NCBI RefSeq assembly: GCF_004361695.1
Contig: NZ_SNVW01000005.1
Location: forward strand, 124,001-188,000
From: Curtobacterium flaccumfaciens
Lineage (GTDB): Bacteria > Actinomycetota > Actinomycetes > Actinomycetales > Microbacteriaceae
Length of the DNA: 64,000 nucleotides
Direction: 5' to 3'
In this document: one piece after another, positions 21,373-22,872 of the stretch
Layout of the letters: each line of letters opens with the position of its first letter
Numbering within the stretch: the first letter of the stretch is position 1
Translations under genes and position numbers: made by a program
The notes under the pieces: generated by a model
What the model saw: only the letters and a program-made list of their open reading frames with translations
Told to the model about the DNA's origin: nothing
The model's database searches: none

Positions 21373-21404
21373 GGGCACCCCGCGCCGTTCAGCGCGGGGT
21401 GCCC
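21373..21404. terminator. 12-bp perfect hairpin, likely bidirectional terminator
   Basis: The arms GGGCACCCCGCG and CGCGGGGTGCCC enclose an 8-nt loop. The hairpin lies between the end of the XRE gene and the end of a small opposing reading frame, with no strong T tract. Confidence 0.65.
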
Positions 21405-21410
21405 TGGGTC

Positions 21411-21521
21411 TCAGCCCTTGCGGAACAGCTCGTGCAGGAGCCGGGCCACGGTCACGAGCAAGCTCGCGATCCCCAACCACGGCACCGGACGGCCGCGACG
21501 CGGTTCGTCGTCGTGCGACAT
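21411..21521 (-). CDS. Possible 36-residue membrane-associated small protein
   Basis: The complement from ATG at 21521 encodes MSHDDEPRRGRPVPWLGIAS and then a hydrophobic run LLVTVARLLHELF ending RKG. A purine-rich AAGGTGG is 5-6 nt upstream. The charged head, short hydrophobic segment and basic tail fit a small peripheral membrane peptide. It ends just before the terminator hairpin, and upstream of it lies the stem-loop region at 21574-21697, which could be its leader. I do not recognise a family; it could be a chance frame. Confidence 0.4.
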   Translation of the reverse strand: MSHDDEPRRGRPVPWLGIASLLVTVARLLHELFRKG

Positions 21522-21573
21522 CGGACCACCTTCGTGTCAGCGCCGGCGGACACGAGAAGTGCAGGCCGAGGGA

Positions 21574-21697
21574 TGTATCCCACTCGCGGAGCGGGATACA
21601 ATGGCTCCGAGTCTTGTGCTCGGGACCCGTGTTGTCCCTCGTTCTCCACTCGGAGGACAAATCGAAGCCCACCACTGTTCCTGCAGTGGTGGGCTTC
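21574..21697. ncRNA. Candidate structured RNA with three consecutive stem-loops
   Basis: Stem 1: TGTATCCC (21574-21581) pairs with GGGATACA (21593-21600), with an inner CTC/GAG. Stem 2: CTCCGAGT (21605-21612) pairs with ACTCGGAG (21648-21655) and encloses GGGAC/GTCCC (21622-21626 with 21634-21638). Stem 3: a perfect 14-bp hairpin, GAAGCCCACCACTG (21664-21677) with CAGTGGTGGGCTTC (21684-21697). The stems follow each other with spacers of only 4 and 8 nt and the region is noncoding. The strand is undetermined: on the complement stem 3 is followed by GATTTG, and the small frame at 21411-21521 lies downstream; on the plus strand it lies upstream of the N-carbamoylputrescine amidase gene. No known riboswitch class was recognised. 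Confidence 0.45.
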
Positions 21698-21775
21698 ATC
21701 CTCGTCTGGGCCGTCGTCCCGGCGTGACTCCGGCCCGCAGCCAGCATACCGATATTCTGGCCGCACACCCGGGGC

Positions 21776-21804
21776 TTGTGCTCGTTGATCGGTTGATCAA
21801 CAAT
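21776..21804 (+). promoter_or_regulatory. Leaderless promoter with overlapping palindromic operator
   Basis: TTGTGC (21776-21781), a 17-bp spacer and AACAAT (21799-21804) are followed by 6 nt and the ATG at 21811. The perfect palindrome GTTGATCAAC (21792-21801) overlaps the -10 box and a further GTTGATC half-site lies at 21784-21790. A bound repressor would block polymerase. Confidence 0.5.
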
Positions 21805-21810
21805 GGCGCC

Positions 21811-22872
21811 ATGAACGTCATCACCGGCTCGACGCCGCGGTCTCCCCTCCACCAGGACACCGGTGCCCCTCGCCGCACCGTCCGCGTCGCCCTCGTGCAG
21901 ACACGATGGCTGGCGGACCCGGAGGAACACCGGCGGCAGCTCGCGGACGGCATCGCCACGGCAGCCGCGAACGGCGCGAACGCGGTGTTCCTGCAGGAGC
22001 TCACCCTGCTTCGCTACCCGGGCGACACCCCGGCGTCCGGCGTCCCGAAGGACCTCGCCGAGTCGCTCGAGGACGGCCCCACGACCGCGTTCGCCCGCGC
22101 GCAGGCGATCGAGCACGGGGTGTTCGTGCACGCGTCGCTGTACGAGCGCCCCGCCGAGGACGACCGGCCCGACGACCCGCGCGGCTACAACACGGCGATC
22201 CTCGTCGGCCCCGACGGCACGGTGGTCGGCCGGACCCGCAAGACGCACATCCCGATCAGCGCCGGCTACCACGAGGACACCTACTTCCGCCCGGGCAGCG
22301 ACGCGGACGCCTTCCCCGTGTACGAACCACCGGGGCTCGGCGCCCGGGTCGGGTTGCCGACCTGCTGGGACGAGTGGTTCCCCGAGGTCGCGCGGTCCTA
22401 CGGCCTCGCGGGTTCCGAGGTCCTGGTGTACCCGACGGCGATCGGCTCCGAACCGACCTTCCCGGACTTCGACACCGCGCCGATCTGGCGGCAGGTCATC
22501 GTGGCGAACGGCATCACCGCCGGGCAGTTCATGGTCGTGCCGAACCGGTGGGGCGACGAGGGCGACATCACCTTCTACGGGTCGTCGTTCATCTCGGACC
22601 CGTTCGGCCGGGTCCTCGTCGAGGCGCCGCGCGATGCCGATGCGGTGCTGGTCGCGGACCTCGACCTCGACGCCCGCGTCGAGTGGCTCCGCCTCTTCCC
22701 CTTCTACGTGACACGGCGACCCGACCTGTACGGCGGCCTGGTGCAGGAGGTCGACCCCGTCCGCGACGGGTACGGCGCGCACGAGGCGATCCGCGCCTCC
22801 AGGCCGGTCCCGCCGACCGACGGCCGCTGGACGGAACCGGCCGGTGCCACCCGACCGGCGGTGCTGTCGTGA
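21811..22872 (+). CDS. aguB: N-carbamoylputrescine amidase (nitrilase superfamily)
   Basis: The 353-residue carbon-nitrogen hydrolase has the Glu-Lys-Cys triad: Glu63 in FLQELTL, Lys in GRTRKTHIPI and Cys in LPTCWDEWFPE. FRPGSDADAFPVYE and the C-terminal FYVTRRPDLYGGL fit N-carbamoylputrescine amidase, which yields putrescine, CO2 and ammonia. The next gene is agmatine deiminase, starting at a GTG that overlaps the stop by 4 bp; together they convert agmatine to putrescine. No Shine-Dalgarno precedes the ATG, but a promoter is positioned for leaderless initiation. The C-terminus contains one copy of the dispersed CCTCCAG element, encoding RASRP. Confidence 0.93.
   Translation: MNVITGSTPRSPLHQDTGAPRRTVRVALVQTRWLADPEEHRRQLADGIATAAANGANAVFLQELTLLRYPGDTPASGVPKDLAESLEDGPTTAFARAQAIEHGVFVHASLYERPAEDDRPDDPRGYNTAILVGPDGTVVGRTRKTHIPISAGYHEDTYFRPGSDADAFPVYEPPGLGARVGLPTCWDEWFPEVARSYGLAGSEVLVYPTAIGSEPTFPDFDTAPIWRQVIVANGITAGQFMVVPNRWGDEGDITFYGSSFISDPFGRVLVEAPRDADAVLVADLDLDARVEWLRLFPFYVTRRPDLYGGLVQEVDPVRDGYGAHEAIRASRPVPPTDGRWTEPAGATRPAVLS

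What the first reader, a model, noticed from the sequence alone, without database searches (positions are those of the whole stretch)
21574..21697. Three tandem stem-loops in a noncoding gap: possible new structured RNA
Stem 1 (11 bp with bulges), nested stem 2 (8 bp plus inner 5 bp) and stem 3 (perfect 14 bp) are spaced by 4 and 8 nt between a regulator gene and the agmatine genes. Nested paired helices of this kind are far from expected by chance in 124 bp. It could be a leader of the 36-residue frame on the complement, an attenuator, or a stand-alone small RNA.
Basis: partly seen in the sequence, partly recalled or inferred. Interest (0 to 1): 0.65.

Follow-up and report, generated by a model that had tools for sequence, protein, structure and literature searches.

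The report
Small RNA beside a tiny peptide gene
The hairpins belong to an unnamed small RNA that plant-associated bacteria carry beside a 36-residue, probably membrane-bound peptide gene on the other strand, a layout like that of RNA-controlled toxin genes, so it may be a new toxin-antitoxin pair that bench work must test.

Summary
The hairpins are real and non-random. They belong to a conserved ~350-bp cassette of Curtobacterium (Actinomycetota) and a few relatives: a 36-37 aa amphipathic peptide gene (- strand, 21411-21521) and, divergently, a ~100-nt structured RNA (+ strand, ~21605-21700). That RNA has three hairpins with compensatory changes (9 of 26 pairs) and a G.U bias (56 against 7 A.C in the last hairpin) placing it on the + strand. 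Stem 3 stands; stem 1 is the spacer of a predicted promoter; stem 2 as drawn lacks support. Scans of 66 genomes gave 61 peptide and 72 RNA hits: 60 of 61 peptides have the RNA 83-96 bp away; ten solid RNAs lack a peptide, one peptide lacks the RNA. One plasmid copy. Best reading: a type I toxin-antitoxin-like module (0.6). Transcripts, toxicity and pairing are untested; strict promoter and + strand terminator patterns were not found. An inverted repeat spanning the RNA's promoter leaves open whether the two transcripts overlap. Nothing in Pfam, nothing but tRNAs in Rfam at gathering level.

The parts
21374..21403 (-). G+C-rich hairpin just after the stop codon of the peptide frame, probable end of its mRNA
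   Evidence: Perfect inverted repeat in the window sequence; forms and varies on both sides in the mRNA consensus fold of 27 loci. No T-run, so the terminator scan does not list it
21411..21521 (-). 36-codon frame MSHDDEPRRGRPVPWLGIASLLVTVARLLHELFRKG (candidate toxin peptide)
   Evidence: 47 distinct relatives of 36-37 aa; 61 profile hits in 43 of 66 genus genomes; predicted helix 15-35
21526..21533 (-). ribosome-binding site GAAGGTGG
   Evidence: GGAGG-like stretch 5-12 nt before ATG in the listed loci
21530..21559 (-). leader hairpin whose 3' side includes part of the ribosome-binding site
   Evidence: Inverted repeat CTTC..GTGTC/GACAC..GAAG; forms in the single-sequence mRNA fold of the window copy
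21561..21581 (-). leader segment 'a' (contains arm A, CGAGGGA at 21567-21573 on +)
   Evidence: Cognate-specific complementarity to the stop-codon window, z -3.84, best of 91 tests; arm A pairs with arm B
   Evidence: TANNNT in 56 of 56 intact loci, 54 of them 66-73 nt before the last hairpin, and in 6 of 6 further loci. Not found by the strict consensus scan
21605..21709 (+). the structured RNA (candidate antitoxin); model match, transcript ends not known
   Evidence: 98.6 bits; covariation; strand bias
21606..21624 (+). hairpin 1 (CCGAG/CTCGG)
   Evidence: 96.8% of cells paired on 25 relatives, but no two-sided change
21635..21641 (+). arm B (TCCCTCG), complementary to arm A across the promoter
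21641..21658 (+). hairpin 2, loop ACUC nearly invariant
   Evidence: 3 of 7 pairs with two-sided changes
   Evidence: 6 of 14 pairs with two-sided changes; 56 G.U vs 7 A.C. The T-tract pattern is met only on the - strand

Best explanation
A two-gene module of type I toxin-antitoxin style. The - strand makes an mRNA for a 36-37 residue peptide with a charged N-terminal tail and one amphipathic helix, the size and shape of membrane-acting type I toxins. Its ribosome-binding site sits in or beside a leader hairpin and leader segment 'a' can fold back on the stop-codon region, so the mRNA is probably poorly translated by default. The + strand makes a ~100-nt structured RNA from its own promoter-like site, which would keep the peptide silent by pairing with the leader. 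SHOWN by comparison: the peptide family, the covarying + strand RNA, their near-constant divergent pairing, RNA copies without peptide, a plasmid copy. INFERRED: toxicity, repression, both promoters, the RNA-RNA contact. Two geometries stay open: the mRNA starts inside the RNA gene, which gives perfect cis-antisense overlap (hok/sok- or aapA/IsoA-like), or it starts near the shared promoter and the RNA acts by short contacts at the leader and ribosome-binding site (tisB/istR-like).
For: Covarying + strand RNA. 60 of 61 peptide hits have the RNA on the other strand at 83-96 bp; 10 solid RNA copies (in 9 genomes) without peptide against 1 peptide without RNA, as for antitoxin-only orz loci in E. 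coli (PMC11264685, passages). RNA still present at 58-72 bits beside diverged peptides. Intact pair on a plasmid within 1 kb of a mobF relaxase gene. Predicted single helix. Leader-to-stop complementarity and a hairpin at the ribosome-binding site, features known from hok and aapA mRNAs (PMC6733600, passages).
Against: No transcript, toxicity or repression data. Strict promoter scan found none on either strand, and intrinsic-terminator patterns only on the - strand. The predicted RNA start, 6-8 nt after TANNNT, would cut the 5' arm of hairpin 1 (hexamer ends 1-5 nt before it). Longest Watson-Crick run between RNA and mRNA, if they do not overlap, is 7 (median; maximum 10; with G.U 10 and 18), below the 18 nt or more stated for type I pairs (PMC4147584). 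The contact signals for the RNA itself are modest (z -2.1 to -2.7 among 91 tests, two tests above +2), and their windows were partly chosen on the same data. The leader-stop pairs show no G.U excess (40 vs 52 A.C). One peptide (L159) lacks the RNA. 0 of 66 viral and no phage relatives: no mobile carrier beyond one plasmid record.
Confidence: 0.6

Rival explanations
1. The peptide is no toxin but a small membrane regulator, and the RNA is an ordinary small RNA that tunes it, or acts in trans on other genes.
For: Ten RNA copies persist without the peptide; the RNA's unpaired parts are as conserved as its helices; toxicity is untested.
Against: Tight coupling of the two genes, several copies per genome, plasmid copy; one peptide only without RNA.
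Confidence: 0.22
2. One longer + strand RNA that starts left of arm A, folds into a three-way junction (A:B, palindrome, hairpin 1) plus hairpins 2 and 3, and is antisense to the ribosome-binding site; TANNNT is then structural. (A variant of geometry; it does not exclude a toxin-antitoxin role.)
For: Arms A and B covary: 44 distinct pairs, 503 Watson-Crick, 52 G.U, 15 A.C, 24 mismatch or gap; cognate score 19.75 vs 15.49 non-cognate and 13.78 shuffled. The junction segment folds better on + in 36 of 56 loci, on - in 14. The short-RNA start would cut hairpin 1.
Against: No TANNNT-type site seen left of arm A in the listed loci (by eye). In one search the - strand folds better in 6 of 7 loci. 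RNA copies that lost arm A persist (L070, L076, L077).
Confidence: 0.15
3. The whole stretch is the structured 5' leader of the peptide mRNA, with no separate RNA.
For: - strand folding energy is as good and its terminator pattern better; the junction is better on - in 6 of 7 loci.
Against: G.U against A.C in hairpin 3 (56 vs 7) and hairpin 2 (11 vs 4); ten RNA copies without a frame to lead.
Confidence: 0.1
4. A repeated DNA element or chance terminators without an RNA function.
For: Several copies per genome in 22 flank combinations among 70 loci.
Against: Compensatory changes, conserved frame and codons, near-constant spacing.
Confidence: 0.03

Closest known systems
Divergent type I modules of E. 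coli: tisB/istR-1, shoB/ohsC, zor/orz, dinQ/agrB (PMC4147584, passages)
   Same: Short hydrophobic peptide and divergent small RNA; ribosome-binding site in structure; antitoxin-only loci known for orz (PMC11264685, passages)
   Different: No Pfam match for 3 of 3 peptides scanned; no run of 18 or more paired nt unless the transcripts overlap
hok/sok and aapA/IsoA (PMC4147584, PMC6733600, passages)
   Same: Possible fold-back between the mRNA's 5' leader and 3' end; possible overlap of RNA and leader
   Different: Here the 5' partner is leader segment 'a', not the ribosome-binding site itself; overlap unproven
sar RNA of phage P22 (RF00262)
   Same: Two hairpins, the second GAAGCCC...GGGCUUC; 32.0 bits in the window, 30.7 and 25.8 bits in two of nine other loci
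   Different: Below the gathering score of 43; no match at E <= 1 in the other seven loci; likely convergent

Membership tests
Type I toxin-antitoxin system | Peptide of under about 60 aa with a hydrophobic or amphipathic helix | tested here: met
   36-37 aa; predicted helix 15-35; hydrophobic moment 0.30-0.50 over residues 14-33 in 47 distinct peptides
Type I toxin-antitoxin system | Small RNA gene beside the peptide gene | tested here: met
   60 of 61 peptide hits, opposite strand, 83-96 bp; transcription itself not shown
Type I toxin-antitoxin system | Extended base pairing of RNA and mRNA (18 nt or more, PMC4147584) | tested here: inconclusive
   Longest run 7-10 if transcripts do not overlap; perfect by definition if they do; mRNA start unknown
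Type I toxin-antitoxin system | Toxicity of the peptide and relief by the RNA | not testable with these tools
   Needs bench work
TisB, Hok, Ldr and other curated peptide families | Match to a Pfam model | tested here: not met
   0 families at E <= 1 for three peptides; family names recalled, the library scan was complete
sar RNA (RF00262) | Score at or above the gathering threshold | tested here: not met
   32.0 of 43 bits; 30.7 and 25.8

The most novel reading that the evidence does not exclude
A type I toxin-antitoxin family native to Actinomycetota whose antitoxin RNA carries a copy of the toxin mRNA's own leader segment (inverted repeat A:B), so that leader junction, mRNA fold-back and antitoxin hairpins compete for the same partners, with the antitoxin promoter embedded inside the junction.
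Probability: 0.35. Interest if true: 0.8.

Novelty: new member of a known kind. Interest (0 to 1): 0.6.

Why it matters
Searches of open-access full texts for type I modules in Actinobacteria gave listings in which I saw nothing on point (titles and abstract starts only, subscription papers not held). A confirmed one would extend RNA-controlled toxins to that phylum with a compact, multi-copy, plasmid-borne test case. Neither gene matches a Pfam or Rfam family, and the plasmid copy has no annotated feature, so such pairs are easily missed.

Tried and rejected
Rfam: only tRNAs at gathering level; relaxed search gave sar, HepC_CRE (25.7 of 140 bits) and other sub-threshold matches. Strict promoter scan: none; terminator patterns on - only. 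Free duplex prediction of RNA and mRNA was useless in this G+C-rich sequence (cognate mean -81.5, non-cognate -81.8). A column scan for conserved complementarity gave mainly wobble-rich matches. RNA segment B against the coding region: no cognate signal (p 0.93). With 13 clusters the other contacts had p 0.005 (B x ribosome-binding window), 0.031, 0.026, 0.029, and controls 0.13-0.43. Agmatine attenuator: set aside because of many contexts. IMG/VR and phages: no relatives. Order-wide RNA scan: besides this genome five of 297 genomes with one match each below 40 bits, probably terminators. My first count of 14 of 70 loci without peptide was too high: the pattern missed four changed frames (L014, L019, L045, L078) that one search finds; one search replaces it.

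Full report
WHAT IS THERE. The 151-nt stretch around the finding folds far better than shuffles on both strands, so one sequence cannot tell the strand. Of 36 named relatives found by the peptide pattern, 31 are Curtobacterium, 4 are labelled only Microbacteriaceae bacterium and 1 is Frondihabitans sucicola. In 398 family genomes 22 match at E <= 0.01, 6 of them in the genus; outside it I trust four (G377, G345, G438, G151), the rest being weak.

THE PEPTIDE. Of 70 oriented loci 56 had a frame recognised by my pattern, 47 distinct peptides; consensus of 18 chosen ones MSxDxExRxRRQVPWLGIASLLVTxARLLxDLWRKG. AlphaFold (single sequence) gives one helix, 15-35. No Pfam family. Synonymous sites are constrained too: mean pS 0.266, pN 0.215 over 52 distinct frames; GCG at codon 19 in 52 of 52, TTG in 50 of 51 Leu codons at 21, CTC 50 of 50 at 22, GTG 51 of 51 at 23. 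The same letters form a hairpin in the mRNA consensus fold. dN/dS alone would therefore not prove coding.

THE RNA. Twenty-five relatives, chosen by me from the 56 for diversity, give three helices with 26 pairs, 9 of them with changes on both sides; 97.5% of cells paired vs 89.8% shuffled (0 of 500), covariation score 0.316 vs 0.166 shuffled and at most 0.146 when slid; one measure, the number of pair types, does not exceed shuffles (233 of 500). Hairpin 1 has no two-sided change. In hairpin 3, 45 distinct copies show 56 G.U against 7 A.C cells; in hairpin 2, 19 distinct copies show 11 against 4: both point to RNA on +. TANNNT stands 66-73 nt before hairpin 3 in 54 of 56 loci and at 58 and 89 nt in the other two; 6 of 6 further loci, four outside the genus, have it. 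Against this, the strict scan lists no promoter on either strand and terminator-like sites only on -.

PAIRING OF THE TWO GENES. Whole-genome scans with the RNA model and the peptide profile (both built from loci first found by one DNA search, so not wholly independent; the RNA scan used strict filters) gave 72 and 61 hits in 48 and 43 of 66 genomes. 60 of 61 peptides have an RNA on the other strand at 83-96 bp. Twelve RNA hits lack a peptide; two are weak (38.8 and 36.8 bits) and I discount them, leaving ten in nine genomes. One peptide, G060:C1:834169 (L159), lacks the RNA. Beside diverged peptides in other Microbacteriaceae the RNA still scores 58-72 bits. One of 72,556 plasmid records carries an intact pair: plasmid G54a of Curtobacterium sp. 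MCLR17_054, within 1 kb of a mobF relaxase gene, with no feature annotated on the peptide. Seventy loci fall into 22 joint flank contexts.

MECHANISM. A hairpin involves the ribosome-binding region in the single-sequence folds. I compared cognate with permuted pairs over 20 clusters and 91 window pairs. The best is leader segment 'a' with the stop-codon window (z -3.84, none of 3000 permutations); then RNA segment B with the ribosome-binding window (z -2.70), RNA C with the same (z -2.33), 'a' with the neighbouring stop window (z -2.31), RNA hairpin 3 with the ribosome-binding window (z -2.18) and RNA C with 'a' (z -2.14); six tests lie below -2, two above +2. The leader-stop duplex differs in letters between clades but has no G.U excess (40 vs 52 A.C). 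It resembles the 5'-3' fold-back of hok and aapA mRNAs (PMC6733600, passages).

UNRESOLVED. Arms A and B on either side of the RNA promoter are complementary and change together. With the palindrome and hairpin 1 they make a three-way junction that recurs with other letters in most of the loci. This wants one transcript across the promoter. Strand evidence conflicts: + by wobble counts (52 vs 15) and by fold energy in 36 against 14 of 56 loci, - in 6 of 7 loci. Also the RNA start expected from TANNNT would cut hairpin 1. Either the peptide mRNA starts inside the RNA gene, or a longer + RNA exists, or both.

LITERATURE. I read passages of PMC4147584, PMC8309996, PMC11264685 and PMC6733600. Searches on type I modules in Actinobacteria or small RNAs of Curtobacterium gave no paper or listings with nothing on point by title and abstract start; open-access papers only.

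VERDICT. A real, conserved RNA-plus-peptide module; a type I toxin-antitoxin-like function is the best reading (0.6), unproven.

Noticed in passing
21453-21476 (- strand, codons 16-23): A run of codons is nearly invariant even at synonymous sites (YTG GGG RTC GCG AGC TTG CTC GTG) and forms a hairpin in the mRNA; why is not known.
   Followed up: partly
window 21411-21700; G000:C6:25634-25935; G000:C15:35877-36173: The window's genome carries three copies of the cassette, each with peptide and RNA.
   Followed up: partly
L161 5800-6108: Plasmid-borne intact pair near a mobF relaxase gene and IS5 transposase genes.
   Followed up: partly
L120 645-715 and L124 2467-2539: tRNA genes lie about 0.6-0.8 kb from two distant copies, a possible integration-site link.
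   Followed up: no
21765-21830: The stretch before the carbon-nitrogen hydrolase gene (contains GTTGATCGGTTGATCAAC) recurs by itself elsewhere in many of the genus genomes, perhaps a conserved operator of the agmatine genes.
   Followed up: no
L015 (G037): RNA kept while the peptide frame breaks off after about 14 codons and runs into other sequence.
   Followed up: no
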